Shown here: in pieces, positions 46,002 through 63,902 of the stretch
How positions within the stretch are numbered: the first letter of the stretch is position 1
How the letters are laid out: the number at the start of each line of letters is the position of its first letter
NCBI GenBank assembly: GCA_900320185.1
Contig: ONRD01000018.1
Span: forward strand, 17,978-81,977
Direction of reading: 5' to 3'
Source: an uncultured Bacteroidales bacterium
GTDB taxonomy: Bacteria; Bacteroidota; Bacteroidia; Bacteroidales; UBA932
Length of the DNA stretch: 64,000 bases
The notes under the pieces: generated by a model
The model's input: only the letters and a program-made list of their open reading frames with translations
Databases searched by the model: none
Told to the model about the DNA's origin: nothing
Translations under genes and position numbers: made by a program

Positions 46002-46014
46002 TAACAATCAAGCA

Positions 46015-46800: not shown

Positions 46801-46896
46801 ACTGACCCCTGCCGTGAGGTATAAGTGCGTGAGGATGACTTCTGTTGAGGCTTCTTCATGTTTCACTCCTCATACTTGTCTGCTTGCTGATAACCG

Positions 46897-47723: not shown

Positions 47724-47923
47724 AGTATGAAGTTTAAACAATTGTTACACTGTCATTCCCAGACTTTGATCGTCTTCCTAGGTTTTCTCCCGGTCAGGGG
47801 CTGACTGGAGCGCGTAGCCAGGAAGCAAACTCCTGGCTTGCGATTAAAGATAAACATTATTTCAAAGATTCCCAAGGCCATCTTCTCTGCATTTACACAG
47901 TTCTGGATGACGAACTTTCACGT

Positions 47924-48355
47924 TTAATACAAGGAGCGCTCATCGAACATTTCACGCGGCATGATCGACGTGGTGTTCTCGACTTTATAGTAGGGGCGGC
48001 TGTCGTATGTGTACGGTGCAGCCATAACAGCCGGAGCCGGGAACCAAATGGCAATGACTTTCTGGTTGGGCCTTTCGGGGACATCGACATATTGCGCGTA
48101 GAGGTCAATGGCAGGTGAGAACTTGCGCATTTCCTTGGCGATATCCTGACGTGTCTGGTCGGCCACATCCTGACCTAGAATCTTCAGCGACTTGGGGTGG
48201 ATACCGAAAAAGAGCCAGCCTCCCTCGGTGTTTAGGAAGGCGCAGCCGGACTGCATCCCAGCAACCAACTCTCCGGTGGTCTTTTTGACCTCCAAAATGC
48301 GGCTTTCATCGCGGTGGATGATGGTCTCTATGTCGTGTATTGTCAGCTCCTTCAT
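47924..48355 (-). pseudogene. AlbA_2 (Schlafen-like) DNA-binding protein, N-terminal fragment
   Basis: A 143-residue ORF matching the N-terminal AlbA_2 domain of putative ATP-dependent DNA-binding proteins: HRDESRILEVKKTTGELVAG, CAFLNTEGGWLFFGIHPKSL, VIAIWFPAP and RPYYKVENTTSIMPREMFDE. Full-length members run to about 350-500 residues with an HTH tail. Here the frame ends at ERSLY soon after the domain, and the next 180 bp (47742-47923) show no matching continuation. I read it as a truncated remnant, though a stand-alone domain is possible. Confidence 0.7.
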
Positions 48356-48828
48356 TCGGCTCTATATTAGTTTCACAAATGTACGAAAAGAAATCCGGGC
48401 AGCAATCAATATTCACGAGGAAGAATCCGCAGGATGAAAAATAGACAAGTTTATCTGTAATGCACGCGATATCAGGCGTTTTCCAGCGCTTTATACGACC
48501 GAATATGATGCAAAAACAACAGCGAGACAAACATTATTTTGCTTATCTCGCTGTAAATCTGTATGTTAAGAGTGAAACTTTCTCTTAATACTCCTCCTCG
48601 TTGAAGGTGGACTTTGATTCTTGTAAGTAGTTTATCTTTAACAAGTTAGGTTGTGGCCAAAAACTTTGGGAAGTCGCTTGGAAGTCTGAGACGAGCCGAG
48701 GGGTGGTTATTCAGACATTTATACCGATATTGGAAAGGGGTAAGAAAATTTCTAAAAAGTAGTAAGAAAACTAGAATTAATAGGGAGAAAAACATATCTT
48801 TGCAGATAATAATGCCATAGCTATAACC
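48356..48828. other. 473-bp gap without a gene; contains a hairpin
   Basis: No convincing ORF is seen. ACAGCGAGA (48519-48527) and TCTCGCTGT (48546-48554) form a perfect 9-bp inverted repeat with an 18-base loop. Read on the minus strand it is followed by a T-rich run (TTGTTTTT), so it may be a terminator of something lost from this strand. The right end holds the Fic promoter. Confidence 0.5.
48795..48802 (+). promoter_or_regulatory. -7 box of the Fic gene
   Basis: TATCTTTG is an exact TAnnTTTG match 26 bases before the start at 48829. No -33 TTG is obvious; the upstream 60 bases are very rich in A. Confidence 0.55.
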
Positions 48829-49824
48829 ATGAAAGATCAATTGACAGCCTTGATTGAGCAATATAAGCAATTGGGTATTGATTGCCAGATAGACTACGAG
48901 AAGTTCTATCTGTACTCGATCATTACCCATTCCACCGCTATTGAAGGGTCGACGGTTACGGAAATAGAAAACCAGCTTCTCTTCGACGAGGGAATCACCG
49001 CGAAAGGGAAACCTCTCATGGAGCAAATGATGAACCTGGATTTGAGGCGTGCCTATGAAGAGAGCATTCGCCTTGCCAAGAATCATACGGACATTACTGT
49101 CGACATTCTGAAGGCCCTGTCCCATCTGGTCATGCAGAATACTGGCTCGACATACAAGACTGTCCTCGGCGACTTCTCATCCGCAAATGGCGACCTCCGG
49201 ATAGTCAATGTCACCGCTGGCGTCGGGGGACGCTCCTATCTGAGTTACAAGAAGGTTCCCGCCAAATTGCAGGAGTTCTGCGACTGGCTCAATGCCCAGC
49301 GCCAGCGTCCCATGTCCCTGTCGGAACGTTATGACTTGAGTTTCGAGGCTCATTACCGCCTGGTGACCATCCATCCCTGGGCCGATGGAAACGGACGCAT
49401 GGCCCGTCTCGTCATGAATCAGATCCAATTTGAATTCGGCTTGATTCCTGCCAAGGTGCTCAAGGAAGACAAAGGGGATTATATCAATGCGCTCATCGCA
49501 ACCCGGGAGGCGGATGATATGTCCATTTTCCTTGAATTTATGACGGACGAAATGGTCAAGACACTGTCCGCAGACATCGAGGCATTTCTTAAGTCGATTG
49601 ACGATGATGGGGAGAATAGTCAATTGAAAGGGGAGAAAAAACAAAAAAGTAGGGAGAAAATTCTCCAACTTCTCAGAGATCACCCTAACTATTCGGCCCG
49701 CAAACTCGCTGAAATAATCGGAATAACTCCCAAAGCCATCGAAAAGCACCTTGCAAAACTCAAAGCCGCGGGTCTCATCCGAAGAGAAGGCCCGGACAAA
49801 GGCGGTTCTTGGACGGTGTTATAA
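48829..49824 (+). CDS. Fic-domain protein with C-terminal winged helix
   Basis: A 331-residue protein. The catalytic loop is TIHPWADGNGRMARLVMN, the Fic motif HPF-x-x-GNGR-x-x-R with Trp in place of Phe. Near residue 35 THSTAIEGSTVTEIENQLL carries the N-terminal inhibitory motif (S/T-x-x-x-E-G), so this is a self-inhibited class. The flap region LGDFSSANGDLRI precedes it. A winged helix-turn-helix closes the protein (NYSARKLAEIIGITPKAIEK). Fic enzymes usually transfer AMP to protein hydroxyls. Such Fic-HTH proteins are common, mostly orphan, in Bacteroidales. It is convergent with an ADP-ribosylglycohydrolase fragment. Confidence 0.92.
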   Translation: MKDQLTALIEQYKQLGIDCQIDYEKFYLYSIITHSTAIEGSTVTEIENQLLFDEGITAKGKPLMEQMMNLDLRRAYEESIRLAKNHTDITVDILKALSHLVMQNTGSTYKTVLGDFSSANGDLRIVNVTAGVGGRSYLSYKKVPAKLQEFCDWLNAQRQRPMSLSERYDLSFEAHYRLVTIHPWADGNGRMARLVMNQIQFEFGLIPAKVLKEDKGDYINALIATREADDMSIFLEFMTDEMVKTLSADIEAFLKSIDDDGENSQLKGEKKQKSREKILQLLRDHPNYSARKLAEIIGITPKAIEKHLAKLKAAGLIRREGPDKGGSWTVL

Positions 49825-50469: not shown

Positions 50470-51042
50470 ATGATTGTAAAAACCAAAGCTAATGCACCGG
50501 TCGGCCAGCTGAAGCTTGACCAAACGGGGGAATTCCTGCAGACGGGCCGCAGGTCTCCTGACAAGAAGCCCCGGAAAGAGTCACCCCAACTCGCAGAATG
50601 GGAGAAACGGTTTCTAAAGGAAGCGTTCTTCCTATATGAAAACAGGGAACGGATTCTCTCCGACATCAGAATGTCCCTCACGCCCACTCCATTCCGGAAC
50701 GGACTTGCCTATAGCAGCACCTCCGGACTTGGCGGAGCAACGCTTGGAGTCTATCTCGAATGGTGGGACGTTTGCCGCAAATCAGTTATCAGAAACGAAG
50801 AAAATACATACGCACTCACCTACCGCATAGCCGGCAGCCCGCTTTCCGGTAGCAATTCCTGCTCGGCCGTCACAAGGGACGGCAGGACAATCACCGTCCA
50901 TCTGATGAGCCCGTTTTCGGATGCCTGGGGCTCCTTCATGCACATCAACCAGCGCTATGCCGATTTAAAGAAACTTTATCCAGCGTCAGCCTATACCCTG
51001 GAAGAAACCATTGCAAAACTGCGAGATACATATGGGAAGTAA
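50470..51042 (+). CDS. Unknown protein, first of a three-gene operon
   Basis: A 190-residue soluble protein, MIVKTKANAPVGQLKLDQTG. A basic segment RRSPDKKPRKESPQL precedes a helix (EKRFLKEAFFLYENRERIL) and then a beta-rich part with SSTSGLGGATLGVYLEWWDV, YRIAGSPLSGSNSC and ITVHLMSPFSDAWGS. No family recognised. It overlaps the next gene by 11 bases. The operon ends 52 bp from the convergent vWA gene, so it may belong with the MoxR/vWA system. Confidence 0.65.
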   Translation: MIVKTKANAPVGQLKLDQTGEFLQTGRRSPDKKPRKESPQLAEWEKRFLKEAFFLYENRERILSDIRMSLTPTPFRNGLAYSSTSGLGGATLGVYLEWWDVCRKSVIRNEENTYALTYRIAGSPLSGSNSCSAVTRDGRTITVHLMSPFSDAWGSFMHINQRYADLKKLYPASAYTLEETIAKLRDTYGK

Positions 51043-51880
51043 CTTGTTCGATCATTTTACCGAGACACTGTCGGTCCTCATCACCAAGGAGAGCCTTAGC
51101 ATTACCCGCCTGTTCAATCATATGTTGAAAGACCTTGAATGCGCATGGAGAGCACTCCCGGAAGAGATTTCCATCGAACTTATCAAAGAGAAACTCTTCC
51201 AGTCGGTGGTAAAGGACTTGGCGGAAGAGCTCGAGGTGCCCGAATCAAAAGACATTCGGATGAACCCGGAAGAGACTACTACGCGATTAATCCGTCACGG
51301 CATCCCAAAAGGGAACATTTCCGCGAAATTCAACTATTTGACTGCCAGCCTTCCCAATGCAGATTACCGGCTGTACAGAGAGACCAGCGGGAATTCGGCC
51401 GACACCATCCGGATTACCCGGAATGGGTACAGCGTTTACATCACCTCCAGGCTCTCGTCCGAAGAAACCGCCCGGTTTGTGCTGCTGCTGGATGAGCACC
51501 TGCCGAGAATCGACGAAGCAGCCGGAGCGTTATTCGGGGAACTGTTGCAGGAATACCGGAATAAGCAAAAGGAAATGATGGCCCTGGATATTGCCAGGAA
51601 GGCCGTGGATGCCCAACTCGCAGACATACTCCCCGGGATGGGTATCAAGGTGAAATACAAGATTGCCGACGGGAAGGTCAAGATGCATCTCACCCGGACT
51701 TTCACAGGTGAAGTCGAACTCCCGCTCGAAGCGCTCCGGGATTTCCTGTCCAATCCCGGGCGGGTTGAATCCGCCCTCAAGCTAGAGCCGGTCTCTCCGG
51801 AACCAGAGAAGGATCCGGACTTTCTGCATCCTTTTCCTCCCACGATTTTTCGTTCAAACATCGTTTTAAATCCAAAGTAA
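51032..51880 (+). CDS. Unknown protein, second of a three-gene operon
   Basis: A 282-residue soluble protein, MGSNLFDHFTETLSVLITKE. The N-terminal helices include TRLFNHMLKDLECAWRALPE. The middle has two beta-rich pieces (TIRITRNGYSVYITSRLSSE), a helical linker (NKQKEMMALDIARKAVDAQL) and a last beta-alpha piece MGIKVKYKIADGKVKMHLTR. No catalytic motif seen. ATG 51011 also opens the frame; I choose 51032 because it gives the shorter overlap with the upstream stop at 51042. The layout suggests a structural or adaptor protein, but this is a guess. Confidence 0.65.
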   Translation: MGSNLFDHFTETLSVLITKESLSITRLFNHMLKDLECAWRALPEEISIELIKEKLFQSVVKDLAEELEVPESKDIRMNPEETTTRLIRHGIPKGNISAKFNYLTASLPNADYRLYRETSGNSADTIRITRNGYSVYITSRLSSEETARFVLLLDEHLPRIDEAAGALFGELLQEYRNKQKEMMALDIARKAVDAQLADILPGMGIKVKYKIADGKVKMHLTRTFTGEVELPLEALRDFLSNPGRVESALKLEPVSPEPEKDPDFLHPFPPTIFRSNIVLNPK

Positions 51881-51883
51881 ACT

Positions 51884-52645
51884 ATGACAGAGAAGAAATA
51901 TCAGAGGTACTACGACCTTGCAGGCAAGGCGTCGTTCGAGAACTGGGAATCCGTCAGGAAGAGCAAAATGTGCGGATGCTACTATTGCCGGAGCATCTTC
52001 CCTTCATCCGATGTCGGGGAGGAAGACTGGACACCAGACCGTCACGGAAGGACGGTCCTCTGCCCGAAGTGTTCCATCGATTCCGTCATCGGCGACGCAT
52101 CGGGCATTCCCATCTGGGAGGATGTGTTGGAGGAACTGTACCAGGAGAAGTTCTGTCCCACCGATTTCCCCATAGTGAGAACGGAACGCCTGCTCATCCG
52201 TCCCGTTCTGGAACAGGATGCGGCGGACATCCTCGAGATTCGTGGGGACGAGGATACGGCCGATTGGGCCGCAGTCCCTTGTATGAAGATCATCGAAGAG
52301 GCAAAAGACTATATTGTAGACCACACAGAATATGGTCGGGGACTTTCCCTTGTCCTCGGGGATGAGGTCATCGGGTTGATAGAACTCTATGCGGCCTATG
52401 AACTGTCCGGTGATTTCATGGGATACTATATGAAAAAAGCCCACCGCTGCAAGGGATATATGACGGAAGCGCTCACGGCTTTGCGGAAGAAGTGGACTGA
52501 AGAAGGGGAAGAAATCCCCATGCTGTGGATTTATCCTGACAACTTCGCGTCATTGAGAGTCGCGGAAAAAAGCGGCTGGACCTACCAGTGCTCTCATATA
52601 ATGGATATCAACTGTTTTAATCAACTCGTGGTTCTTTATAAGTAG
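51884..52645 (+). CDS. GNAT acetyltransferase with N-terminal zinc ribbon
   Basis: A 253-residue protein. Residues about 15-75 hold a four-Cys ribbon: SKMCGCYYCRSIFPSSDV with CGCYYC, and TVLCPKCSIDSVIGDASGIP with CPKC. This piece is known as a stand-alone small protein in many bacteria. Residues about 95-253 form a GNAT domain: VRTERLLIRPVLEQDAADIL, GDEVIGLIELYAAYEL and HRCKGYMTEALTALRKKW (acetyl-CoA loop), then IYPDNFASLRVAEKSGWTY. Target is unknown, perhaps a protein N terminus or a small amine. Last gene of the three-gene operon, 3 bp after its neighbour. Confidence 0.82.
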   Translation: MTEKKYQRYYDLAGKASFENWESVRKSKMCGCYYCRSIFPSSDVGEEDWTPDRHGRTVLCPKCSIDSVIGDASGIPIWEDVLEELYQEKFCPTDFPIVRTERLLIRPVLEQDAADILEIRGDEDTADWAAVPCMKIIEEAKDYIVDHTEYGRGLSLVLGDEVIGLIELYAAYELSGDFMGYYMKKAHRCKGYMTEALTALRKKWTEEGEEIPMLWIYPDNFASLRVAEKSGWTYQCSHIMDINCFNQLVVLYK

Positions 52646-52697: not shown

Positions 52698-53789
52698 TTA
52701 AGGCAGGATCATAGTACATACACGACCATACTTTTCCATCCAGTCGTGGTGCCTGTCGTAACACTCCCGGTTCTCGCAAACCCACATAATCTTGGTCTTG
52801 AAACCTTCCGGAATCCGCGGTTCCGGAGCATCTCCGTCGGTCAAAATCAGAAGGCCGTCATAGTTCTTATCGAAAGCATATTGAATGGGATCATCGAATG
52901 AGGTCCCCCCTCTTCCGACAATCTCAATATGGGCAGCTGCCCTCTTCAAGCTGTACGCTTTGCTGATGCAAGAGTCGAACTGTACCACATCGACGGCCTC
53001 AAAACCATATTTGAAGGCGGAGCCGACCACACCGTAAAAATGGGATAAGGTTTTGACCGATATACTACCGGAAACATCGACAGCAACCAGAAGTCTGGTG
53101 ATGAATCTGCGCCGGGAACCCATCTGCTCAAAGCCGAATCTTCTACTGGGGCGCATCCTGGTCAAGTCGCGCTTGCTGGAAAGGATACTGGCCCGAAAAC
53201 CGGAAAAAACACTTCGCCAATCTATTCTGGCCTTCGTAGATGCGATGATGGTTTCAGCCAGCCTAAGAGGGATTGTCCCCCAATCCCGGGCATTCACGAT
53301 GGCCTCGTTTATGGAATCCGCCGCCAGATCGTCCTCTTCCCATAATTCACACAGATCCCGGCTCGGCCCTTCTGAATCTCCGTCATCCGGAATAAGGTCT
53401 TCAATCTTATAACTGTACCATTCGTAGGAATGCCCGGATTCCAGCCCAAAATCTCCTGGTCTCTCCAGAGTGTGGAACTGAAAAGTATAGTTGTCCGACA
53501 GGGTTACATTGCTCGCCGCGGATATAGCCCTGGGACCGCACAAGTCCGGTTTACGTTCATAAGGATGCTTAAGCAGAATCCTGATTGCCTCAGCCTTGAG
53601 AACCTCCTCCAGTTGCTGACGAGGGATTCCTGACAGGACATCGGGATTATATTCTATCCGGTGTTTGCCGCTCCTGACGGGACAGTCCATATGCACATTT
53701 TCGGTCAGTTCGTGCGCGCAGGCAACAGCGAACATCGGCGGCTCAAGGACGAACCACTTTTCAATTATGCTATTCAACAGTTCACGCAT
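52698..53789 (-). CDS. vWA-fold protein of the DUF2201 type
   Basis: A 363-residue protein. Residues 1-170 are a metallopeptidase-like helical domain (EVLKAEAIRILLKHPYER lacks a clear HEXXH and so is probably inactive). The C-terminal vWA domain has the MIDAS motif LVAVDVSGSISVKTLS, then VDVVQFDSCIS, GRGGTSFDDPIQYAFD and LLILTDGDAPEP, all three metal-site loops. vWA partners of MoxR ATPases receive or present substrates for remodelling. It is 9 bp behind the MoxR gene and is the last gene of the five-gene operon. Confidence 0.9.
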   Translation of the reverse strand: MRELLNSIIEKWFVLEPPMFAVACAHELTENVHMDCPVRSGKHRIEYNPDVLSGIPRQQLEEVLKAEAIRILLKHPYERKPDLCGPRAISAASNVTLSDNYTFQFHTLERPGDFGLESGHSYEWYSYKIEDLIPDDGDSEGPSRDLCELWEEDDLAADSINEAIVNARDWGTIPLRLAETIIASTKARIDWRSVFSGFRASILSSKRDLTRMRPSRRFGFEQMGSRRRFITRLLVAVDVSGSISVKTLSHFYGVVGSAFKYGFEAVDVVQFDSCISKAYSLKRAAAHIEIVGRGGTSFDDPIQYAFDKNYDGLLILTDGDAPEPRIPEGFKTKIMWVCENRECYDRHHDWMEKYGRVCTMILP

Positions 53790-53798
53790 TAAAATACG

Positions 53799-54869
53799 CT
53801 AAATGCCCTGAATGTATTGAATCATTTCCGCAGACACCTGCGGTGCGTTAACAGCAATGAACTGCACTGCTGAAGAATAGGTCTGCTGGACGTACAAGTT
53901 TGCAAAATGGGCAGCTGCTTCTTTCTTCTTGCCGGTAAGGAATGTGAAGTACGCAACAAGATTGCCTGCAATCTTCTTGCTGCCCTTAATATCTCCGGTC
54001 TCAAGCACCCTGAAGATGGAATCATTGATTACCGACAAGTCGTGGAGAGCATATTTCTCCAAAACCGTCTTTACCTTCTCAAAATCCTCCAGGACGTCTT
54101 TTCCCGTAATAAGCTTTCTCTCCGAAAGGCTTTTGTAAAAAACGGAAGCTCCCTTGGCTCCAACGATGCTTGAGATGGTCTTCAACTTGGATGAAGAGAT
54201 CTCCTTTACGCCTTTCAGCACATCTGAGACCCTCTTCCACGCACGACGGTCCGGGGTCTTTTCCAGTCCGGTATCTGCGTTTTCCTTTCTGTCAGGATCC
54301 TTGTCGAGCCAAAAGGGATTCTCTTCAATAAAGGAAATCACCCTCGGGTCAAGCGAAGACTTCTTTGCCCAAAGCAGCCATTCCTGGACGGTCGGTTGAA
54401 ACACCACGATGTTAAACCGGCTGACAAGAGCCGGATCCAGGTCCGTGAGTTGGTATTGATCTCCGGCATTTACGGCCGATATGACCCGGCTTCCTTCCGG
54501 CAATTCCCTCCCCGCCAACTTCCGGTTGAGGGCCAAATCCATGATTGTCTGAAGAATCTCCGGACGGGCGCGGTTCAGTTCGTCAAGGAACAACACGATG
54601 GGCTTCCCGTCAATCGGGAACCAGTAAGGAGGCATGAAATCCGTCTTCCCGGTGTCCTCATTCATGTGCGGGAGACCAATCAAGTCCCCCGGATCGGACA
54701 TCTGCCCCAGGAAGAGAGCAACCACCCTCATTCCTTTGTCCGAGTAGTACTTGGTAAGGATCTCGGACTTGCCGATACCGTGATTACCAATCAGCATAAT
54801 GTTGTGCTCGGGCGGCGTGTCATCCAGCACCTGGAGCAACTCCGTGATATTTACTTTAATGTTAGACAT
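53799..54869 (-). CDS. MoxR-type AAA+ ATPase
   Basis: A 356-residue AAA+ ATPase. Walker A is IMLIGNHGIGKSEILTKYY near residue 24, Walker B IVLFLDELNRARPEILQTIM near 90, sensor 1 VISAVNAGDQYQLTDLD, and the arginine-finger region PALVSRFNIVVFQP. The C-terminal lid is helical (KRVSDVLKGVKEI). MoxR enzymes work with vWA proteins as chaperone-like remodelling machines, as in RavA-ViaA. Its start overlaps the stop of the upstream LRR gene by 8 bases. Together with the vWA gene it is the output end of the operon in my reading. Confidence 0.93.
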   Translation of the reverse strand: MSNIKVNITELLQVLDDTPPEHNIMLIGNHGIGKSEILTKYYSDKGMRVVALFLGQMSDPGDLIGLPHMNEDTGKTDFMPPYWFPIDGKPIVLFLDELNRARPEILQTIMDLALNRKLAGRELPEGSRVISAVNAGDQYQLTDLDPALVSRFNIVVFQPTVQEWLLWAKKSSLDPRVISFIEENPFWLDKDPDRKENADTGLEKTPDRRAWKRVSDVLKGVKEISSSKLKTISSIVGAKGASVFYKSLSERKLITGKDVLEDFEKVKTVLEKYALHDLSVINDSIFRVLETGDIKGSKKIAGNLVAYFTFLTGKKKEAAAHFANLYVQQTYSSAVQFIAVNAPQVSAEMIQYIQGI

Positions 54870-56721
54870 AGTAGAATAGCCATTCGTGGAAACCTAATCT
54901 TTCTACTTTATTACCATATTTCTGCGATAATTGGTCATACGCATCCTCCAGATTCAGCAACGCTTGAAATGCCTTCTTCGCCGTTTCCTCCGTTACGCGA
55001 AAGTGAAATGAAACTCCCGGAATAGGTTGTCCGCTGACAGATCTCATTCCGCGGTCCCAATTCCCGCGATAATTGATTCGGATGCTTCCAGCGGGGGTTG
55101 AATCAGCATACTCCGCCATCGCTTTCCGGAAAGAGGTGGCAACATCCAAAAGGAATTCCAAGTCTTCTTGAGCCGTCTCCACTTGAAGTTCCAGCTTTAT
55201 TTCCAGCACATTGAACACAACGACTTCAATATTCGGGTTGGTCCGGAAATACGTGTATTCAGAGGAACTGAAGTAAATGTATTTGAACCCGGCAGATCCG
55301 ATAATGGACTCACACATTGATTCCAACATCTTGTCCTCGGCTTTCTTCTCCCGTTCCCTTCTCTCTTTTTCGACATGCTCCAATTCTCTGCTCTGCTTTT
55401 CTCTCTCCATTGCTTGCACTTTGGTGTTGAGCAAACTCTCGGATGGATAAACCAATTGGCCGTTGACATAGACGCTCAGAATTCTCTCTGTCCACCGATT
55501 GATCGGAAACTTGTTTTTAATTCTGATCTTAAGGTTTTCATTGGCTGATGTAACTCCGATAAGATCCACCCTGCACACTGTTTGCCAAGGTCCAAAATTC
55601 TCAGAGAGAAGGAGAGCCGGAGGTACCGAAATGGCAGGGAACGGATAAGATTCCAGAAATCCTTTACCGATACTCTGCATTGTCTTTGGCAGAACCAACT
55701 TCTTTAATTTCTCCATTGAATGGAACGGGAGAGAACTTATGTGTGTTATGCCTTCCGGGATGATCAATTCCTCCACGTCAAAAAAAGAGGGGAAGGAATC
55801 GTCCTTAAGACGGATGGATTTCAAGTTCTCCGGGAGTTTCGTAGCTTCGGGGAATACATATAGCAACTCCCTTTTATTCCTGTCAATCAGACAGTTGTAC
55901 TCTATCGTCAACACCTTGTTGTCCGGGGAGATCGACAAGGTCTTCCATTCATTTCCATCCGGGCAAAACTCTTTGAGAGTGGACGGCAAATGGACGTGTG
56001 CGGCCTCGCAGGCAAAAAAGACATCAGGACCGATACTTGTAATACCCTCGGGAACGTCAATTCGCTCCAAAGCCCAGCAACAACAGAAAGCGGCATTTCC
56101 CAATTCTTCCATTTTCTTAGGGAGAGTAAGCGTTTTCAGTTTATGGCAGTTGTCGAAGGCTCCAAGACCAATCGATTTTACGCTCTCAGGAATGGTCAAA
56201 GCCTCCAATGAAGAACAGTACCGGAAACTATGAGCCCCGATTCTTTCCAGTCCTTCGGGAAGTGAAACTTCCTGCAAAGGACACCCATGAAAGGCATCCT
56301 CACCGATCGTTTTAAGATTCTTGGGCAAAACAATCTTCCTGAGGGATGAACATTGGGAAAAGGCCCCTTTCCCAATGCTTGTCACGGTGTCCGGGATTAC
56401 AACCTCCTGTAAGCTCGAGCATCGAAAAAAAGTCTCGTCACTTATCTCTTTAATTCCCTCAGGCAGGACGGCTTTCGTCAAGGCGTCACAACACTCGAAG
56501 CAGCGCTTGCCAATCTTTTTTACCGTATCCGGAATCGTGATGGAAGTTAATGAAACACAACCGGAAAAAGCATACCAGGATATGGCGGAAACACTATTGG
56601 GGATAGAGACACTCTTCAACTGCTTAATGCCCATAAAAGCTCTCTGGCCAATCTTATCAACGCCCGCAGGAATCTCCGCGTGACCTTCTACGTTTATATA
56701 ACTATTGCCATACATAACCAC
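54862..56721 (-). CDS. Cytoplasmic BspA-type leucine-rich-repeat protein, downstream copy
   Basis: A 619-residue protein without a signal peptide. Residues about 10-260 hold some ten LRR_5 (BspA/TpLRR) repeats of about 23 residues, such as LKSVSIPNSVSAISWYAFSG and LTSITIPDTVKKIGKRCFEC, with later degenerate repeats to about 370. A coiled segment (REREKKAEDKMLESMCESII) leads to a C-terminal domain of about 150 residues shared with the neighbouring paralogue (DLEFLLDVATSFRKAMAEY and QALLNLEDAYDQLSQKYGNK). LRRs of this type are usually exported; these are not, so a cytoplasmic recognition role is likely. First codon shares one base with the upstream gene. Confidence 0.9.
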   Translation of the reverse strand: MVMYGNSYINVEGHAEIPAGVDKIGQRAFMGIKQLKSVSIPNSVSAISWYAFSGCVSLTSITIPDTVKKIGKRCFECCDALTKAVLPEGIKEISDETFFRCSSLQEVVIPDTVTSIGKGAFSQCSSLRKIVLPKNLKTIGEDAFHGCPLQEVSLPEGLERIGAHSFRYCSSLEALTIPESVKSIGLGAFDNCHKLKTLTLPKKMEELGNAAFCCCWALERIDVPEGITSIGPDVFFACEAAHVHLPSTLKEFCPDGNEWKTLSISPDNKVLTIEYNCLIDRNKRELLYVFPEATKLPENLKSIRLKDDSFPSFFDVEELIIPEGITHISSLPFHSMEKLKKLVLPKTMQSIGKGFLESYPFPAISVPPALLLSENFGPWQTVCRVDLIGVTSANENLKIRIKNKFPINRWTERILSVYVNGQLVYPSESLLNTKVQAMEREKQSRELEHVEKERREREKKAEDKMLESMCESIIGSAGFKYIYFSSSEYTYFRTNPNIEVVVFNVLEIKLELQVETAQEDLEFLLDVATSFRKAMAEYADSTPAGSIRINYRGNWDRGMRSVSGQPIPGVSFHFRVTEETAKKAFQALLNLEDAYDQLSQKYGNKVERLGFHEWLFYYV

Positions 56722-58697
56722 TAATAATCTTTAATCGGGCCGACCAGTTTCTCCGCCTTCTCTCCATATTTACGCAACATATCCGCATAGGCCACCTCCA
56801 GATTGTCCAGCGCCTGAAATGCCTCCAAAACCGAATCCTGATCCAGCTTCAGATAGATGAGCATCCCCGGGAAAGGTTCACCGCTGATATACTTCTCCGT
56901 ACCTTCATATCCTTTCCACTCAGACCTGGTGATGAGGTGCGGATCGGACGATGCAGAGATGTATGTTTTCAATGCTTCACGATATGATGTAGCAACATCC
57001 AAGAGAAAGGCGAGATCATCCCGTGCCGAATTCATCTGAAGAATATACTGCATTTTCAACGAATCAAATATCGTGACAGTTAATCTGTTCTTAGAGTCCA
57101 GATAGTCAAAGGCGAAACCACCGGGCTCAAATGCCGCTTTACAAAGAGATGACAATGTCATATCCTCAACCTTCTCGGCCATCTCTTGTTTCCGTTGCTG
57201 CAGCCTCTCCCGTGCTTTGGCTTCCTCCCTGGCCCGAAGTACCTCGATGGCAGGAAAAACCAACTGACCACCCAAATAGACACACGTTCCACTACCGCCC
57301 CAGGACCATCCGTTAGAAAACCGTTTCTCAATCGCGGATCTCAATTCTTCACTGACTGACTCAACCCCTATCAAATTCACCTTCTGCGGCCAATTATAGT
57401 AAAAATGATCGTCAGCAAGGAGAAGCGTTGGCGGGACCGAGATGGAAGAGAAAGGGTAGTCGCGCAAAAAATCTCTGCCGAGGCTTTGCATTGTCTCCGG
57501 CAGCACAAGTTTCTTCAGTTTTTTCATCTGGCCGAAAGGCAGATTGCTGATGTGAGTAACACCTTTTGGAATGATCAATTCCTCGACGTCAAGCAGCGGA
57601 GGCAGAGAACCGAAGGATAGATGGATGGATTTCAGGTTCTTCGGAAACTCAGCCGCATCCGGAGAGATGTACAATAATTCACGCTTCTGTTTGTTAACCA
57701 AACAGTTGGATTCCATAGCAAGGACCGGGTTAGCCGATGAAACCGAGAGTGAGGCCATATCGTTATAGCCCCATTGGAATTTGTATGGATGAATCCTATA
57801 TTTTCTCTCTTGATCGCTGACTGTGTTAAACTCCATTACGGTGGAAGAGAGGTGGACGTGTATGGAAGTGCATCCAGCAAAAACCAAGTGATGTATCCTT
57901 GTCACACCCTCGGGGATATCGACCCGCTCCAATTGGGAGCACCCCCGGAAAGCCTCGTCTTCCAAAACATCCAGCTCCTTTGGAAGTTTCAGCGTCCGCA
58001 AGGTGGTACAATCCATAAAAGCCGCACGATCAATCATCTTGATGCTTTCCGGTATTGACAAGGACACCAAGGAGGTACATCCGCGGAAACACTCCTCGCC
58101 AATTGTTTCGATACCTTCGTCGAGGATTACTTCTTCCAGCGGCGTGCAATGGAATCCGCTGAGGGATTTGACTGTCGAAGGAATATGCAGTCTGGTGAAA
58201 GGACATTCCATAAATGCATCCTTTTCGATTGCTGCCAATGAATCAGGAAAAACGATCGATTCAATTTTGCATTTTTCAAAGGCCTCCTCACAAATAGTCT
58301 TGAGTTTCCTTGACAGGACCACCTTCGACAATGAGCTGCATCCAGAGAATGCACCTTTTGCAATTCTCGTCACACTGTCAGGAATGACAATCTCCTCTAG
58401 ACTCGTACAATCCTTGAACACATACTCGTCAATTGCTTTGAGCCCATCCGGAAGAACGATCTTCGTCAATCCAGAGCATCCTTCAAAGCAGTGCGTGCTG
58501 ATCTTTTTGACCGAATCAGGAATCGCGATTGCGGTCAGATTCTTGCACCCCGCGAACGCTTCTGACTGGATAGCCACCACAGTGTCCGGAATGATAACAC
58601 TGCTTATCTTTTTACCCCGGAACTCTTTCTGGTAAATCTTATCGACCCCGTCAAAGAAAACCACCTGGTCGTTTTCTATGTAACCGCTAGTTAGCAT
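56721..58697 (-). CDS. Cytoplasmic BspA-type leucine-rich-repeat protein, upstream copy
   Basis: A 658-residue paralogue of the downstream LRR gene, again with no signal peptide. Repeats start at about residue 30 (KISSVIIPDTVVAIQSEAFA, LTAIAIPDSVKKISTHCFEG, LEEIVIPDSVTRIAKGAFSG). A coiled segment near 500 (REEAKARERLQQRKQEMAEK) precedes the same C-terminal domain (DLAFLLDVATSYREALKTYI and AFQALDNLEVAYADMLRKYG). The concave face residues differ between the two copies, as expected if each binds a different partner. It starts 11 bp after the STAND NTPase gene and ends on the base where the next gene begins. Confidence 0.9.
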   Translation of the reverse strand: MLTSGYIENDQVVFFDGVDKIYQKEFRGKKISSVIIPDTVVAIQSEAFAGCKNLTAIAIPDSVKKISTHCFEGCSGLTKIVLPDGLKAIDEYVFKDCTSLEEIVIPDSVTRIAKGAFSGCSSLSKVVLSRKLKTICEEAFEKCKIESIVFPDSLAAIEKDAFMECPFTRLHIPSTVKSLSGFHCTPLEEVILDEGIETIGEECFRGCTSLVSLSIPESIKMIDRAAFMDCTTLRTLKLPKELDVLEDEAFRGCSQLERVDIPEGVTRIHHLVFAGCTSIHVHLSSTVMEFNTVSDQERKYRIHPYKFQWGYNDMASLSVSSANPVLAMESNCLVNKQKRELLYISPDAAEFPKNLKSIHLSFGSLPPLLDVEELIIPKGVTHISNLPFGQMKKLKKLVLPETMQSLGRDFLRDYPFSSISVPPTLLLADDHFYYNWPQKVNLIGVESVSEELRSAIEKRFSNGWSWGGSGTCVYLGGQLVFPAIEVLRAREEAKARERLQQRKQEMAEKVEDMTLSSLCKAAFEPGGFAFDYLDSKNRLTVTIFDSLKMQYILQMNSARDDLAFLLDVATSYREALKTYISASSDPHLITRSEWKGYEGTEKYISGEPFPGMLIYLKLDQDSVLEAFQALDNLEVAYADMLRKYGEKAEKLVGPIKDY

Positions 58698-58708
58698 ATA
58701 GTTACCTG

Positions 58709-61372
58709 TTACTTATTCTCTACTATTTCAGATAAACTCTTCTGCGCTTGTTCTTCATTTCCGAGTTCTTTCCATTTCTCGGCTGAGCGACGGAAGTAGT
58801 CATTTGCCGCATCTATATTACCAAGCGCCAAATATGACTGGCCAACACGATTGAATAAAGTAGCTATCCAGTCTTCATCGCTAATCCTTGTGGCAATCTC
58901 GAGGGCTTTAAGCCTGGACTCCAATGCTTTCTCTTTATCACCCACTTTTCCGTATTCGTAACCAACCGTATCATAACAAGATGTGGCCATGATGGTGTCT
59001 TCGCCATAAATTAGTAACTCAATTGTTAATCCGATCTTTGCTAATTCTAGAGCCATCTTATGATTCCCTTGTTTCAGATACCTCATCCTTAAGTGATGAA
59101 CACCTCTAAAAGTATATTCAAGTCCTCTTCTGGCGGCCTCATTTATTTTCCAATTCTCCCTTCCGATTCCAAAGCTTGATTCCTCTTCATCTGAATTGGA
59201 ATAAATGTAGGCCGACTTAAACAAATAATACGCCTTGTCATAATAAAAAAGAGCATTACTATTGTCTCTCGACTCCAAATACATACGCCCTGTACGGTAG
59301 TAACTATCTGCGAGTCTTACACTACTAAAGCCAAAGTCTGAAACAAACGAAATCAATACTTTAATAAAGCCAAATTTCTTAATTGTAGAAAGATAATCCT
59401 CCAAATGGTACTTGTCGGAGGAATCGGATAAAAGCAGGTTCCACCACCAAATCAAATCTTCTTTATAATTTCCATAAAAGAACCTGAATGTATCTTCCCT
59501 CATAAGTAGAGAATATAGAGAATTATATATTCCGAGTTCACTATACTGGTGCCCCAACTCCAACCAAGAGTATGCGGTGTCAGTCTCTTGTGAACGACAG
59601 TACTCAACAATTTCCCCACGAATCATCTGCACAAAGTTATTATTCGAAGACAAATAGCGTTGCTGAACTGCTTCCGAAAAGAAACGATGAGAAAAGCTCA
59701 CGAGTCCCATCTTTATATTTAAATGGGATATGAGACCACAATAAAGTTGCGACCATTGTAGAGGCTTCAATTGGGCAATCCAAGTGATGGCGCCTTCCGG
59801 CACTCCACTACGAGACAACAAGATGAGGCTCAAGACATGGCTCACCATTTCTTCCCCAAAATCATCCTCAAAACGCTCAAGAACCCGCTGGTAAAAGTCC
59901 GGAATGCTCTTGGGTGCGAGGTAATAATGGATTCTCTCCTCCAAATTATCATAAGAACCGGAAGAAGCCAACTCATCCAATAGTGTCTTTAAGACAAGCG
60001 TGTTCGAACATTGCTCATTGTTTATGATAGCTGTCACTTGCTCATCTGTCAAGTGCTTACCATAATTATTGATAAGATAGTCACCAACAAGCGTGCGCCT
60101 CTGCTCAAAACCTAGTGGATGAAGTTCAAACACATTATACTCATGTTGTTTGAAGACTTCCATGGTGGGGTCCTCATCGAGTGTTGTAATGATCAACTTT
60201 ATATTCTTGGGCGGGTTGCCGAGCCAAAGCATATCTTTAGCGTCCTTATCATAGTGATTGCGCTTCTCGATCCAAGATTTGGATGGAAGAACTATGCCTT
60301 GACGATTATCAACGAGCTGGTTCACGGCATCAAGGACAATCAAGCATCCTTCCTTGTCCACGGATATCTGGTTGTAAATCAATTCCAGTGTATCGGTGTC
60401 CTCCTTGCTCCACTTCTCCTTGTCCCGTTCATCAAATGGCGGCTCCAACTTGAACTGATCTTTCAGATCGGCACATAGTGTCTTAACCACGTGGTGGTGG
60501 CTCCCGAGGCTGCCGCCATTCCCGATAAAATGATAGATAATTTTGCGATTAGTTTGCTTTTTATCAAGCAACCTTTTTACCCAGTTGGCCACTAGGGCGG
60601 ACTTGCCGAGACCGCTTTCGCCAGTAACAATCAGATATTGCTGATTCTCATCCGACAAGAAGTTGTCTAACTTTTCAAAGTTTTCTTTTACCGGAACATA
60701 GCTCTGACACAACTGATTAAGGAACGACCGCTGCGAAATCCGCTCTTTCTCCAAGAATGACAAAGAATGCTTTTCCGGGAATAGTTCATCCAACAATCGC
60801 ACAAAAGCATCTTCCACCTGTTTGGCCAGATCCTCCGGACTAGTGAAGTCAAACACTGGGTAACGTCCGTTTGAACGGACAGCACGCTTCAGTTCGGCCA
60901 GTTTTTCGGGATTATTGTCTCGCTCCTCCTTATTGTCATTGATATAGAAGAAAGCGTGCAGGTCTTCCTTATGCTCAAGAACCCCGAACTGCATCTCCAT
61001 ATCAGTCACGCTCAGTTTACGCTCAACGTAGGACCGCACCTGATCGAAACGATCAAATGTACTCTCTTCGATATCTCCACGTGAAGGGACCCAGCCATAT
61101 CTGTTCCCGATGATGCCAATGAAGAATGGTATCGAGTTTTGTATCTCCCGCAAACAGATATCGACAACTTTCCCGGACTCGCTCTCCTCCTTAGTGATGC
61201 CCCAGCGGAGATCCACTTCCGTCAAAGTAACATCTCTATTTGCCGCCATAACCCGAAGCCTCGGGAACGTCTTCTTCATCAGTTCCGTCCGCTCGTCATT
61301 CATATCCGAGAATGTAGAGGAAATGAAGACGCGGATGGTGCGGTTTTCTATTAGGCTGATGGGCATAAACAC
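58709..61372 (-). CDS. DUF4062-NACHT-TPR STAND NTPase
   Basis: An 887-residue signalling ATPase. Residues 12-95 form a DUF4062 domain (RVFISSTFSDMNDERTELMK and LTEVDLRWGITKEESESGKV), a TIR-related fold. The NACHT-like P-loop is IVTGESGLGKSALVANW (Gly251 to Ser258), with Walker B CLIVLDAVNQLVDN near 345 and IKLIITTLDEDP. The helical middle (LSLILLSRSGVPEGAITWIA) is as in TEP1-like proteins. C-terminal TPRs run from about 690 (YYRTGRMYLESRDNSNALFY, YGKVGDKEKALESRLKALEI, LGNIDAANDYFRRSAEKWKE). STAND proteins oligomerise on ligand binding and trigger an effector. First gene of the five-gene operon; ATG 61366 is an alternative start. Confidence 0.93.
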   Translation of the reverse strand: MFMPISLIENRTIRVFISSTFSDMNDERTELMKKTFPRLRVMAANRDVTLTEVDLRWGITKEESESGKVVDICLREIQNSIPFFIGIIGNRYGWVPSRGDIEESTFDRFDQVRSYVERKLSVTDMEMQFGVLEHKEDLHAFFYINDNKEERDNNPEKLAELKRAVRSNGRYPVFDFTSPEDLAKQVEDAFVRLLDELFPEKHSLSFLEKERISQRSFLNQLCQSYVPVKENFEKLDNFLSDENQQYLIVTGESGLGKSALVANWVKRLLDKKQTNRKIIYHFIGNGGSLGSHHHVVKTLCADLKDQFKLEPPFDERDKEKWSKEDTDTLELIYNQISVDKEGCLIVLDAVNQLVDNRQGIVLPSKSWIEKRNHYDKDAKDMLWLGNPPKNIKLIITTLDEDPTMEVFKQHEYNVFELHPLGFEQRRTLVGDYLINNYGKHLTDEQVTAIINNEQCSNTLVLKTLLDELASSGSYDNLEERIHYYLAPKSIPDFYQRVLERFEDDFGEEMVSHVLSLILLSRSGVPEGAITWIAQLKPLQWSQLYCGLISHLNIKMGLVSFSHRFFSEAVQQRYLSSNNNFVQMIRGEIVEYCRSQETDTAYSWLELGHQYSELGIYNSLYSLLMREDTFRFFYGNYKEDLIWWWNLLLSDSSDKYHLEDYLSTIKKFGFIKVLISFVSDFGFSSVRLADSYYRTGRMYLESRDNSNALFYYDKAYYLFKSAYIYSNSDEEESSFGIGRENWKINEAARRGLEYTFRGVHHLRMRYLKQGNHKMALELAKIGLTIELLIYGEDTIMATSCYDTVGYEYGKVGDKEKALESRLKALEIATRISDEDWIATLFNRVGQSYLALGNIDAANDYFRRSAEKWKELGNEEQAQKSLSEIVENK

Positions 61373-61742: not shown

Positions 61743-61856
61743 CTAGGCCCCGCAATTACAACCAACCCTAGACCACCCTCGACCAAGTGAAATAGTTCCC
61801 ATAGTGAAACGAGAATCATCTTGAGTAATCTTCAACGGCTTTAGAACGAACTTCAT
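61743..61856 (-). CDS. Putative RiPP precursor peptide, copy 1 (37 residues)
   Basis: A tiny ORF, ATG at 61856. The product begins MKFVLKPLKITQDDSRF, continues MGTISLGRGWSRV and ends GCNCGA. It lies downstream of an ATP-grasp and a radical SAM/SPASM gene on the same strand, and a second related ORF lies 90 bp upstream. Against that copy the core differs by synonymous changes in Phe, Leu, Gly and Arg codons and keeps ITQDDSRF, MG, SLGR, WS and GC-x-CG. This pattern indicates selection on the peptide. The first 17 or so residues would be leader and the Gly/Trp/Arg/Cys-rich rest the core. Modification sites cannot be known from sequence. Confidence 0.6.
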   Translation of the reverse strand: MKFVLKPLKITQDDSRFTMGTISLGRGWSRVGCNCGA

Positions 61857-61894
61857 AACATACAAAATTTTAGTTTATAAATTTATGATAAAAA

Positions 61895-61919
61895 TGCGTT
61901 CCTTCACTCCGGAAACCGC
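61895..61919 (-). terminator. Possible hairpin after precursor copy 2
   Basis: On the minus strand an imperfect GC-rich hairpin (GCGGTTTCC with GGAACGC) is followed by ATTTTTAT, 27 bases after the stop of copy 2. It could attenuate transcription between the two copies. Confidence 0.35.
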
Positions 61920-61945
61920 ATTATGAACATTCCTCATAATACATA

Positions 61946-62032
61946 TTAAACCCCGCAAGAACAACCTCGCGGAGACCACCACCGCCCCAATGAAACAATA
62001 CCCATCATAAAACGAGAATCATCTTGAGTAAT
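61946..62032 (-). pseudogene. RiPP precursor-like ORF, copy 2, start not clear
   Basis: The minus strand reads ITQDDSRFMMG, then VSLGRWWSPRGCSCGV and a stop at 61946, 20 of 28 residues identical to copy 1. In frame, a stop TAA sits directly before the Ile codon, so no leader like MKFVLKPLK is present. The first in-frame ATG (62008) would give only 20 residues. One base fewer in the A-run near 62032-62034 would open the frame to a GTG at 62045. It may be a decayed copy, or translated from a rare start. The conserved core argues that it was functional recently. Confidence 0.45.
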
Positions 62033-62086
62033 TTATCTTACTCACAAAAATAAGGATTATTTATAATAAACACAATAATAACACTA

Positions 62087-62926
62087 TTATCTACTGAACA
62101 ATCGACTCTCGATTAGGCTAGACAATGATTCTATGTCCTCTTGGAAAACTATGCCTGGCGATAAGTTTGCCTCCAAGATATACCAGTTTCCATTATTTGA
62201 AAGAATCCAGTCTGTCCCAATTATGTCGGCATTTGTCCTCAAAGCTAAAGATTCCGTTCCTTTAATAACGTATTGAGGTACAGAAGATGGATCAATTCTA
62301 TTTATTGATATTGGGTTTACGTTAGCTTTCCATATAGATGGGACTCTTTCATAAACTGTGATTAAACCATCAATGTATAATATACGTATATCTTTTCTAT
62401 ATGGTATATAATCTTCTAATGAAATGGACTCCCCTAGTTTAGTTGCAATATCGATAGTATCAATATACTTAACTTCACTGTCAATCAATGCCTTACCATA
62501 TCCTCCATGGAATTCACCAACTTTAAGGACTTTTGACAAGTGCTCAACATTTCCCATATATGGCGCATTTAATCCGAAAAAACAGGTTTTTCTTATTGAA
62601 GGAAGACCTACTTCGGATATCGCATAGTTCATCAAGGCGTTATGACAATATAGTAAACTAGATAGTGCACTATTAATACAAACGACATTTGTTTGTAAAA
62701 CAAGTTCAAGAATACGCTGTTCTGACAATAGATCTTTATCAAATTGACATCTCCATAATACCAAATCTACAATACACCAACCATCTACTGAGAAGTAGTA
62801 TAATACTTTATTATCTGCATACAAATCAATGTTGCGCGGATCTGGGCAAAAATAAAAACGGCAGCCATGAATCTGACCCAATTTCAAATTCTCGCCTATA
62901 GCCAAAACAATCTTATCCTTATTCAT
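62087..62926 (-). CDS. ATP-grasp enzyme, probable RiPP maturase
   Basis: A 279-residue protein, MNKDKIVLAIGENLKLGQIH. The C-terminal half carries ATP-grasp text: VKVGEFHGGYGKALIDSEVK (nucleotide loop), DIRILYIDGLITVYERVPSI, and the metal-site strand DWILSNNGNWYILEANLSPG (Glu and Asn ligands). These are RimK/graspetide-ligase-like features. Such enzymes link acidic side chains to Ser, Thr or Lys in a precursor. It overlaps the upstream radical SAM gene by 8 bases, and a pairing of these two enzyme types is known as the grasp-with-spasm arrangement in Bacteroidetes. I infer the role from that pairing. Frame extends to 62938. Confidence 0.82.
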   Translation of the reverse strand: MNKDKIVLAIGENLKLGQIHGCRFYFCPDPRNIDLYADNKVLYYFSVDGWCIVDLVLWRCQFDKDLLSEQRILELVLQTNVVCINSALSSLLYCHNALMNYAISEVGLPSIRKTCFFGLNAPYMGNVEHLSKVLKVGEFHGGYGKALIDSEVKYIDTIDIATKLGESISLEDYIPYRKDIRILYIDGLITVYERVPSIWKANVNPISINRIDPSSVPQYVIKGTESLALRTNADIIGTDWILSNNGNWYILEANLSPGIVFQEDIESLSSLIESRLFSR

Positions 62927-63902
62927 ACAATCCGTCAATGTAACCTTTAAGCAATAAAATCAGCCCTTCCTTTGTGACCTCACAATTATTATGAAAAGAG
63001 CCATCACATCTTTTATTACGAACATACTCCCTTGCAGGACATCCTCCTCCACATACAGGAAGAAGAGTACAGTTCCGACACACACTGAAATTACCCGGGG
63101 TATAATTCATTTGCTTATAATATGTTGGTGAAGGTATGAAAGTGCCATTATTGTCAATTCTTCCAGATTTACCTTTTGGATATCCAATCATTAAGTCACA
63201 TTTGTAAACATCCAATTTAGAGTCTACAAAGAAAGCGTTCTCTTGATTGAAATAGCAAGGAGACCTTTTACCGAAGGGTCTCATTATTGGGAATCCGTTT
63301 TGTTTAGAGATGGGCGCTATTTTATCAACTACCATTCTAGAATAGCCAGTTTCATGAAAACATGACTTAAAAGAATCATTTCTGCCTTCGAAACTTTCTA
63401 GAAAGGCCAAATAGATAGTTCTCACATAAGGCTGGACTAACTTAAAGACATCATCAACAGTATCAATGTTCTTTTCATCAACATTAATCCGGACTTGAAT
63501 ATGATCCTTCAGCCCTCTCTCATAACACTTTTTTATATTGTTGAGGATACAATCAAACGTCCCACTTCCATCTTTCCGTACACGCCTTGAATTATGTAAG
63601 TCTCGTCCGCCGTCTATTGTAACCTGTACATCCATGTTAAACCGCCTTATCATCTCGATTACGCCCTCATCCACAAGTGTAAAATTGGTGACCATAAAAA
63701 AAGATGGCCTACAATGATATGAATTGGCTATCTCGTCCATTTTTACACAAAAATCAAGTAACTCTTCTTTTGCAATAAGAGGTTCTCCACCAAACAAAGT
63801 AATATTCAATCGTTTTATGGACGACTTCTCCCTCAATCTCTCTATCTCACTTTCAACAAACCTAGAAATAATCATCAATTGATTATGAGTAATAACCTCA
63901 TA
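62919..63902 (-). pseudogene. Radical SAM/SPASM peptide maturase, 5' end missing at an insertion sequence
   Basis: The open frame from 63878 gives 319 residues: IKRLNITLFGGEPLIAKEEL (the GGEP motif), VQVTIDGGRDLHNSRRVRKD and the C-terminal SPASM Cys cluster (DVYKCDLMIG, SVCRNCTLLPVCGGGCPARE). The cluster motif C-x-x-x-C-x-x-C that must come before GGEP is absent. The frame is open a further 8 codons (YEVITHNQ), then meets a stop at 63905, next to an insertion-sequence-like end at 63910. In intact enzymes the third Cys is commonly followed by Tyr-Glu, so exactly the Cys motif seems to be cut off. If so the protein is inactive. Confidence 0.78.

What the first reader, a model, noticed from the sequence alone, without database searches (positions are those of the whole stretch)
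52698..61372. Five-gene NLR-like operon: STAND NTPase, two cytoplasmic LRR proteins, MoxR ATPase and vWA protein
The genes are spaced by 11, -1, -8 and 9 bp on one strand, so they form one unit. It combines a DUF4062-NACHT-TPR switch with leucine-rich repeats on separate polypeptides, plus a MoxR/vWA pair. NACHT plus LRR in one protein is the hallmark of NLR immune receptors; here the parts are in trans and joined to a remodelling ATPase. STAND proteins and MoxR-vWA gene pairs have each been linked to prokaryotic conflict systems. I do not know a described system with this exact set. The accessory, A+T-richer surroundings fit a defence island.
Basis: partly seen in the sequence, partly recalled or inferred. 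Interest (0 to 1): 0.85.

Follow-up and report, generated by a model that had tools for sequence, protein, structure and literature searches.

The report
MoxR–vWA machine with LRR-tagged partners
A gut bacterium carries a gene cassette in which an ATP-driven protein-remodelling pair sits with partner proteins that share one undescribed plug-in domain, here fused to leucine-rich repeats and set beside a predicted cell-suicide enzyme; this suggests a modular bacterial defence platform, but no function has been tested.

Summary
The five genes, spacings and domains are real. As one recurring "NLR in trans" system the reading fails: in the DNA held for 80 named relatives no STAND relative adjoins MoxR, and six fetched STAND loci show no MoxR or LRR relative. 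What recurs is a MoxR plus DUF2201-type vWA pair (75 of 80) with small partner proteins sharing an undescribed ~96-residue helix–three-strand–helix domain (MACD, my name). LRR1, and through it LRR2, ends in this domain, so the LRR proteins look like MoxR–vWA partners with an LRR front end. MACD was found in 18 of 393 order genomes, each among the 21 with MoxR, though most matches lie away from the MoxR gene; four of 13 family genomes with a match lack MoxR. In two genomes most scanned MACD proteins carry WGR domains instead. The STAND protein has DUF4062, reported as a TIR-like NADase (PMC13174449), with the likely catalytic glutamate kept. Most likely a patchy conflict system with swappable recognition modules and an NADase executioner; defence and STAND–LRR–MoxR cooperation are inferred.

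The parts
58709..61372 (-). STAND protein, 887 aa: DUF4062 (TIR-like NADase type, Glu76 at the likely catalytic position) - NACHT/NPHP3_N (P-loop 251-258) - TPR
   Evidence: (Telomerase protein component 1 chain 11gz_A, E 6e-22)
56721..58697 (-). LRR1, 658 aa: LRR_5 array (about aa 20-435) plus C-terminal MACD domain (aa 495-578) and a second strand-rich unit
54862..56721 (-). LRR2, 619 aa: LRR_5 array plus the same type of C-terminal region (34% identical to that of LRR1)
   Evidence: alone it is only a weak MACD hit (E 0.01 with the converged model, 1.2 with the leave-out model)
53799..54869 (-). MoxR-type AAA+ ATPase, 356 aa
52698..53789 (-). vWA (DUF2201) protein, 363 aa, MIDAS-type DVSGS at 238; faint metallopeptidase-type match (DUF2201_N) without HExxH
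51032..51880 (+). about 282-aa protein (likely start) with a MACD-like region (residues 177-235 of the translation used, which starts at 51026), convergent with the operon
   Evidence: leave-out E 4.5e-4, best single domain 2.5e-3; relative of the 283-aa protein of the C27 locus (E 4e-25)
50470..51042 (+). 190-aa protein of unknown kind beside it; no MACD detected
51884..52645 (+). GNAT acetyltransferase, possible optional neighbour (a weakly similar GNAT gene, E 8e-6, also precedes MoxR in L056)

Best explanation
The core is a MoxR AAA+ ATPase with a DUF2201-type vWA co-chaperone that works on dedicated partner proteins carrying a shared ~96-residue C-terminal docking domain (MACD: long helix, three strands, long helix). 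The N-terminal part of the partners is exchangeable; here it is a leucine-rich repeat array (LRR1, LRR2), elsewhere a WGR domain or uncharacterised regions. Most likely the LRR part binds an invader's (or a stress-altered) protein, the MACD docks on the MoxR-vWA ring, and ATP-driven remodelling releases or assembles the complex. The first gene, a DUF4062-NACHT-TPR protein, is the coupled executioner: on triggering it oligomerises through the NACHT domain and its TIR-like domain destroys NAD+, stopping the infected cell. Shown by computation: gene set, domains, MACD homology, co-occurrence of MACD with MoxR-vWA, conserved ATPase and MIDAS-type motifs, conserved glutamate. Inferred: docking, recognition by LRR, coupling of STAND to the rest, NAD+ loss, defence.
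For: An HMM seeded from three small solo proteins only reached LRR1 at iteration 2 (E 6e-4) and converged at 9e-11. A leave-out model of 77 sequences without LRR, window or own-genome proteins hits LRR1 at 1.7e-4; the best reversed-sequence hit is 0.41. Profile-profile, LRR C-termini against MACD: probability 93.7, E 2e-7, 81 columns. The LRR C-terminal profile in turn picked up an ordinary MACD protein next to MoxR in G202, E 4e-4. MACD in 18 of 393 order genomes, each among the 21 MoxR genomes (hypergeometric 2.5e-28, uncorrected for relatedness); 51 of 67 MACD matches lie over 5 kb from MoxR or on other contigs, so the link is not mere adjacency. WGR in 11 of 14 scanned MACD ORFs of G239/G340. 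DUF4062 aligns with the TEP1 chain 11gz_A, Glu76 in CLREI against CLGEV. DUF4062 NADase and phage defence: PMC13174449. MoxR-vWA as core of proposed conflict systems with NACHT or TIR parts: PMC7159879 and PMC8195603 (sections and passages read). A cluster with MoxR-like and VWF-domain proteins (PA4317-23) is one of those studied as protection against bacterial antagonism in P. aeruginosa: PMC8926400 (passages read).
Against: The STAND gene was seen beside MoxR only in this genome (none adjoining in 80 loci; none of 6 STAND loci) and has the lowest GC of the five, so it may be a passenger. LRR-MACD fusions were seen in only 2 of 32 MoxR genomes. MACD was found within 5 kb in only 47 of 80 loci (26 of 43 vWA-bearing loci with at least 3 kb on both sides). 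Three of 21 order and three of 12 family MoxR genomes gave no MACD match, and four family genomes with a MACD match lack MoxR. The MACD profile was built from MoxR neighbours. Few known defence genes adjoin; PADLOC gives only weak partial matches to the five proteins (best E 2.3e-4). LRR2 alone is not significant as MACD. No functional data.
Confidence: 0.4

Rival explanations
1. The STAND gene is an independent DUF4062-NACHT-TPR defence gene that landed upstream of an LRR-MACD-MoxR-vWA cassette; the two merely share transcription.
For: STAND relatives in 9 of 393 order genomes, own included; six fetched loci from five genomes without MoxR, MACD or LRR relatives, and in G357, which has two MoxR loci, the DUF4062 gene is on another contig. 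No STAND relative adjoining MoxR in 80 loci. GC3 0.49 against 0.57-0.64 for vWA and MoxR.
Against: Only 11 bp separate it from LRR1 on the same strand, in a run of overlapping or nearly touching genes; MoxR-vWA conflict systems elsewhere are reported with TIR and NACHT parts (PMC8195603, PMC7159879).
Confidence: 0.3
2. MoxR-vWA-MACD is a protein-maturation or assembly chaperone with no immune role, possibly of phage origin, MACD proteins being adaptors to cellular clients.
For: Characterised MoxR-vWA pairs insert metals or assemble complexes (PMC13036017 abstract; PMC7159879 section 8). Phage relatives are common: phrog_1297 E 2e-49 and phrog_1314 E 9e-28; 463 phage records match, all under 60% identity and 8 over at least 80% of the length. 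A jumbo-phage pair is proposed to help virion assembly (PMC7824862, passage read).
Against: Patchy presence (12 of 149, 21 of 393), varied flanks, occurrence in Treponema and Spirochaetaceae records too, exchangeable front ends; apart from MACD genes no neighbour is common, the most frequent being a ~550-595-aa AAA+ ATPase within 8 kb in 15 of 80 loci.
Confidence: 0.22
3. NLR in trans, as first read: the LRR proteins are the direct sensors of the STAND protein and MoxR-vWA resets it.
For: Operon order and tight spacing.
Against: LRR1, and LRR2 through it, carries the domain that marks MoxR-vWA partners; STAND has its own TPR region; the combination was not seen again.
Confidence: 0.08

Closest known systems
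MoxR-vWA-centric ternary conflict systems (Kaur et al. 2020, PMC7159879; Kaur et al. 2021, PMC8195603)
   Same: Adjacent MoxR and vWA genes plus a third component with variable N-terminal parts; NACHT-clade STAND and TIR domains are reported among their parts.
   Different: Third component here is MACD, not matched by Pfam; no domain after the vWA; the vWA is DUF2201 type; the STAND has an intact P-loop, unlike iSTAND. DUF2201, DUF4062, WGR and leucine-rich have no occurrence in the main text of PMC7159879; its source data were not seen.
Swarozyc and other DUF4062 TIR-like NADases (PMC13174449)
   Same: DUF4062 with the conserved glutamate; DUF4062 beside NACHT, as reported for TEP1, NWD1, NWD2 and NPHP3.
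   Different: KpSwz has an auxiliary domain that binds the phage portal, not NACHT-TPR; no MoxR-vWA partner is described in the parts I read.
Bacterial NLRs / bNACHT proteins (PMC12169576, passages read)
   Same: NACHT module; LRRs present in the operon.
   Different: NACHT and LRR lie on different polypeptides and the LRR proteins carry a MoxR-vWA partner domain.
Jumbo-phage MoxR-vWA pair with metallopeptidase-fused vWA (PMC7824862, passage read)
   Same: MoxR-vWA pair with a metallopeptidase-type region; the window pair matches phage families phrog_1297 and phrog_1314.
   Different: Proposed there for virion assembly with peptide processing. HExxH was absent from residues 31-200 of all 66 vWA proteins of at least 330 aa from the 80 loci; one family-genome protein outside that set, in L027, has an HEYAH stretch in an N-terminal extension.

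Membership tests
NLR (NACHT plus LRR receptor) | NACHT/NB-ARC module and LRR in one polypeptide | tested here: not met
   STAND protein has DUF4062, NACHT, TPR and no LRR match; LRRs are on separate proteins
MoxR-vWA ternary conflict systems (Kaur) | MoxR AAA+ and vWA encoded side by side | tested here: met
   Window and 75 of 80 relatives
MoxR-vWA ternary conflict systems (Kaur) | Known third component (VMAP, iSTAND, iSTAND2, FtsH, beta-propeller, TERNS3) | tested here: inconclusive
   The five window proteins and the scanned MACD proteins gave no above-cut-off Pfam match to such a component; bpMoxR matched the MoxR only below cut-off; VMAP and TERNS3 sequences were not at hand for direct comparison
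MoxR-vWA ternary conflict systems (Kaur) | Effector domain C-terminal to the vWA or in a vWA-L gene | tested here: not met
   vWA match runs to aa 341 of 363 with no further domain; a separate vWA-L gene could not be tested for lack of its sequence
MoxR-vWA ternary conflict systems (Kaur) | iSTAND: inactive STAND NTPase | tested here: not met
   Intact P-loop GESGLGKS
DUF4062 TIR-like NADases | DUF4062 domain with catalytic Glu | tested here: met
   (51.1 bits), alignment to 11gz_A; Glu76 in CLREI. That this Glu is the catalytic one rests on the alignment and on recalled TIR motifs
DUF4062 TIR-like NADases | NAD+ hydrolysis and abortive phage defence | not testable with these tools
   Needs enzyme and plating assays
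Swarozyc | KpSwz-type auxiliary domain | not tested
   The protein has NACHT-TPR after DUF4062; the KpSwz sequence was not at hand

The most novel reading that the evidence does not exclude
A previously undescribed modular platform of bacterial immunity: one MoxR-vWA machine serves a set of recognition proteins plugged in by a common MACD domain, encoded next to it or scattered round the genome (8 MACD ORFs in the fetched stretches of G239 and 12 in those of G340, each genome with one MoxR match; mostly with WGR fronts), with LRR fronts here and a DUF4062-NACHT NADase as executioner. It would be a bacterial counterpart of a receptor repertoire sharing one adaptor.
Probability: 0.3. Interest if true: 0.87.

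Novelty: new variant of a known kind. Interest (0 to 1): 0.62.

Why it matters
MoxR-vWA pairs are widespread and many have no known client. A shared domain that marks likely partners, including copies encoded far away, gives a direct handle on what they work on, and its fusion to LRR and WGR modules makes the question of bacterial LRR- or nucleic-acid-sensing immunity testable. The window also joins a newly reported NADase class (DUF4062) to such a cassette in one operon.

Tried and rejected
Conserved five-gene NLR-like system: not supported. The convergent 190-aa gene as a MACD protein: no support. Known fold for MACD: no match at E <= 1e-3 in PDB or BFVD for the small-protein model (best BFVD hit E 8.6e-3, an 83-residue unnamed viral protein) and none in PDB for the LRR1 C-terminal model; weak Roadblock/MglB-like hits there (E about 0.1-0.7) were not believed. 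STAND in viral contigs: no relative, with patterns that find close relatives only. Plasmid carriage: 99 plasmid records match MoxR, all under 60% identity and none counted as covering 80%, so spread by those plasmids is not supported. Left edge of the island: the DNA-alkylation gene at 41258 was found in 8 of 13 genus genomes (own included), but no other window gene matched near it in seven fetched stretches from six genomes, so no boundary could be set; the contig ends with the window on the right. MACD matches in four family genomes without MoxR (G019, G023, G067, G137) count against a perfect link; three are weak (8.5e-5 to 6.8e-4), G137 is 2e-8 on a 9.4-kb contig of an 83% complete genome. 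Family MoxR genomes without a MACD match: G014 (which has the LRR-MACD protein), G104, G113; in the order: G258, G400, G438. Five MoxR loci (L071, L075, L086, L090, L092) have no vWA within 2.5 kb; in L071 the next gene is DUF3109. A DUF2201 literature search gave four papers, none on this topic by its listing; MoxR with WGR domain gave none. That MACD is undescribed rests on Pfam scans, NCBIfam for the window proteins, PADLOC and PHROGs scans of a few and paper searches; subscription papers and the supplements of the 2020-21 papers were not seen.
Full report
OBSERVATION. The five genes lie as described, with gaps of 11, -1, -8 and 9 bp. Domains by Pfam: DUF4062, NPHP3_N/NACHT (NACHT itself just under cut-off) and TPR in the 887-aa protein; LRR_5 arrays in both LRR proteins; AAA_5 in MoxR; DUF2201 vWA-like with a DUF2201_N metallopeptidase-type match in the last. 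P-loop and MIDAS-type motif are intact, and none of the five has a strongly hydrophobic segment. Among 66 vWA relatives of at least 330 aa from the 80 loci below, none has HExxH in residues 31-200 and 62 keep D[VTA]SGS. LRR_5 matches fall in only three ORFs of the genome, two of them these.

WHAT RECURS. MoxR relatives were found in 12 of 149 family genomes at E <= 1e-20 and 21 of 393 order genomes at E <= 1e-40, own genome counted. A scan of named genomes gave 426 relatives, of which the best 80 were kept: Bacteroidales, Prevotella/Xylanibacter, Porphyromonas, Treponema and an uncultured Spirochaetaceae among them. Some of these are contigs also fetched from the unnamed set (for example L085 and L022). 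A vWA gene of the same kind lies within 2.5 kb in 75 of 80. No STAND relative adjoins MoxR in the DNA held for any of the 80; one weak hit (E 3e-6) lies 8.4 kb from MoxR in L047. LRR genes resembling the window's are within 8 kb in three of the 80 (L029, L085, L095). In the family genomes an LRR gene is immediately upstream of MoxR in L022, 106 bp after vWA in L027, and one gene beyond vWA in L028. The viral-collection contig L166 has MACD, LRR, MoxR, vWA and AAA+ ATPase genes. A ~550-595-aa AAA+ ATPase is within 8 kb in 15 of 80; the L021 copy matches PADLOC IetA models (E 1.5e-27). How often an LRR_5 gene would fall there by chance in those other genomes was not measured.

THE SHARED DOMAIN. 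Small proteins beside MoxR-vWA looked alike at the C-terminus. An HMM seeded only from three of these (L015, L026, L027) converged on 93 ORFs (a few from contigs fetched twice) and, from iteration 2, on LRR1 (E 6e-4, then 9e-11), the 289-aa gene product, and the LRR protein next to MoxR in L022/L085. A model of 77 sequences, with LRR, window and own-genome proteins left out, still hits LRR1 (1.7e-4), the 289-aa protein (4.5e-4) and L022 (1.8e-3); the best of 5587 reversed sequences scores 0.41. hhalign of the three LRR C-termini against 42 MACD sequences gives probability 93.7, E 2e-7. LRR2 is linked through LRR1 (34% identity, E 6e-31) and is not significant alone. AlphaFold gives, for a small MACD protein, two helices and then long helix, three strands, long helix (pLDDT 94.0), and for LRR1's C-terminus long helix, three strands, long helix followed by a second three-strand-helix unit (pLDDT 84.0 for the best model, 69-75 for the other four). 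No match at E <= 1e-3 was found in PDB (both models) or BFVD (small protein only). None of the scanned MACD proteins has an above-cut-off Pfam match over the MACD region.

CO-OCCURRENCE. In 393 order genomes MACD matched in 18, each among the 21 with MoxR (hypergeometric 2.5e-28, not corrected for relatedness). Of the 67 listed matches 16 lie within 5 kb of MoxR, 7 at 5-20 kb and 44 elsewhere or on another contig, so the link is not only adjacency; contig breaks inflate the last number, and in many genomes only 11 first-look candidates were scored. In the 149 family genomes 13 have MACD, 9 of them among the 12 MoxR genomes; four are not, three of these weakly. The profile was built from MoxR neighbours, which favours such genomes. 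In G239 and G340 fetched stretches hold 8 and 12 MACD ORFs; of 14 scanned, 11 have a WGR domain at E <= 1e-3 and 10 above the Pfam cut-off. LRR-MACD proteins were seen in 2 of 32 MoxR genomes searched, own genome and G014.

THE STAND PROTEIN. Residues 11-129 align with PDB chain 11gz_A, Telomerase protein component 1 (TEP1), E 6e-22. The glutamate of CLREI (Glu76) aligns with that of TEP1 CLGEV; that this is the catalytic residue is my reading of the alignment with recalled TIR motifs. DUF4062 proteins are reported as NADases, in bacteria as the Swarozyc phage-defence system (PMC13174449: abstract, first of six parts of the text, figure legends and passages read). Relatives occur in 9 of 393 order genomes, own included; six fetched loci from five of them show no MoxR, MACD or LRR relatives. 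The gene has the lowest GC of the five.

MECHANISM. Known MoxR-vWA pairs remodel bound proteins with ATP: NorQ is proposed to twist and stretch a linker of NorD (PMC13036017, abstract). The reading offered is that MACD docks partners on the ring, the LRR part recognises a target, and remodelling frees or assembles a complex, with the STAND protein as NADase executioner. Every step after the domain assignments is inference. The passenger reading for STAND (0.3) is nearly as likely as coupling.

COMPARISON. The closest kind is the MoxR-vWA-centric ternary systems (PMC7159879, sections 8, 20, 22 and passages read; PMC8195603, section 6 and passages read). The pair and the constant-plus-variable logic are shared; the known third components and vWA-fused effectors were not found. 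Experimental precedent in defence is indirect: a P. aeruginosa cluster with MoxR-like and VWF-domain proteins is among those studied as protection against bacterial antagonism (PMC8926400, passages read).

Noticed in passing
window 61743-63878, minus strand: Radical SAM/SPASM maturase, ATP-grasp protein and two short look-alike peptides (61743-61856 and 61946-62008, ending ..SLGRGWSRVGCNCGA and ..SLGRWWSPRGCSCGV): probably a small RiPP cluster upstream of the STAND gene, GC3 about 0.3.
   Followed up: partly
window 45207-49824: WYL regulator (45207-46001), Schlafen AlbA_2 protein (47924-48355) and a Fic protein matching PADLOC SoFic (48829-49824, E 1e-28): modest defence-type neighbourhood.
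   Followed up: partly
L062, L064, L079 downstream of vWA: A related ~850-870-aa gene follows MoxR-vWA; in L062, the one scanned, it is a UvrD-type helicase with an internal exonuclease domain, perhaps another partner type.
   Followed up: partly
L167, L168 (contigs of about 364 kb), L169 (32.8 kb): Viral-collection contigs carry a MoxR 51-52% identical to the window's, followed by a vWA gene.
   Followed up: no
L027 2022-3632: vWA protein with an extra N-terminal region containing HEYAHH, resembling a metallopeptidase motif.
   Followed up: no
L071, L075, L086, L090, L092: MoxR relatives without a vWA neighbour, followed by the same small genes; in L071 the first is DUF3109.
   Followed up: partly
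G000 contig C27 (L004 3464-11503): Second MoxR-vWA locus of the same genome, with a 190-aa MACD protein, a 283-aa relative of the window's 289-aa protein, and a 659-aa ORF whose letters resemble the AAA+ ATPase of L021 upstream.
   Followed up: partly
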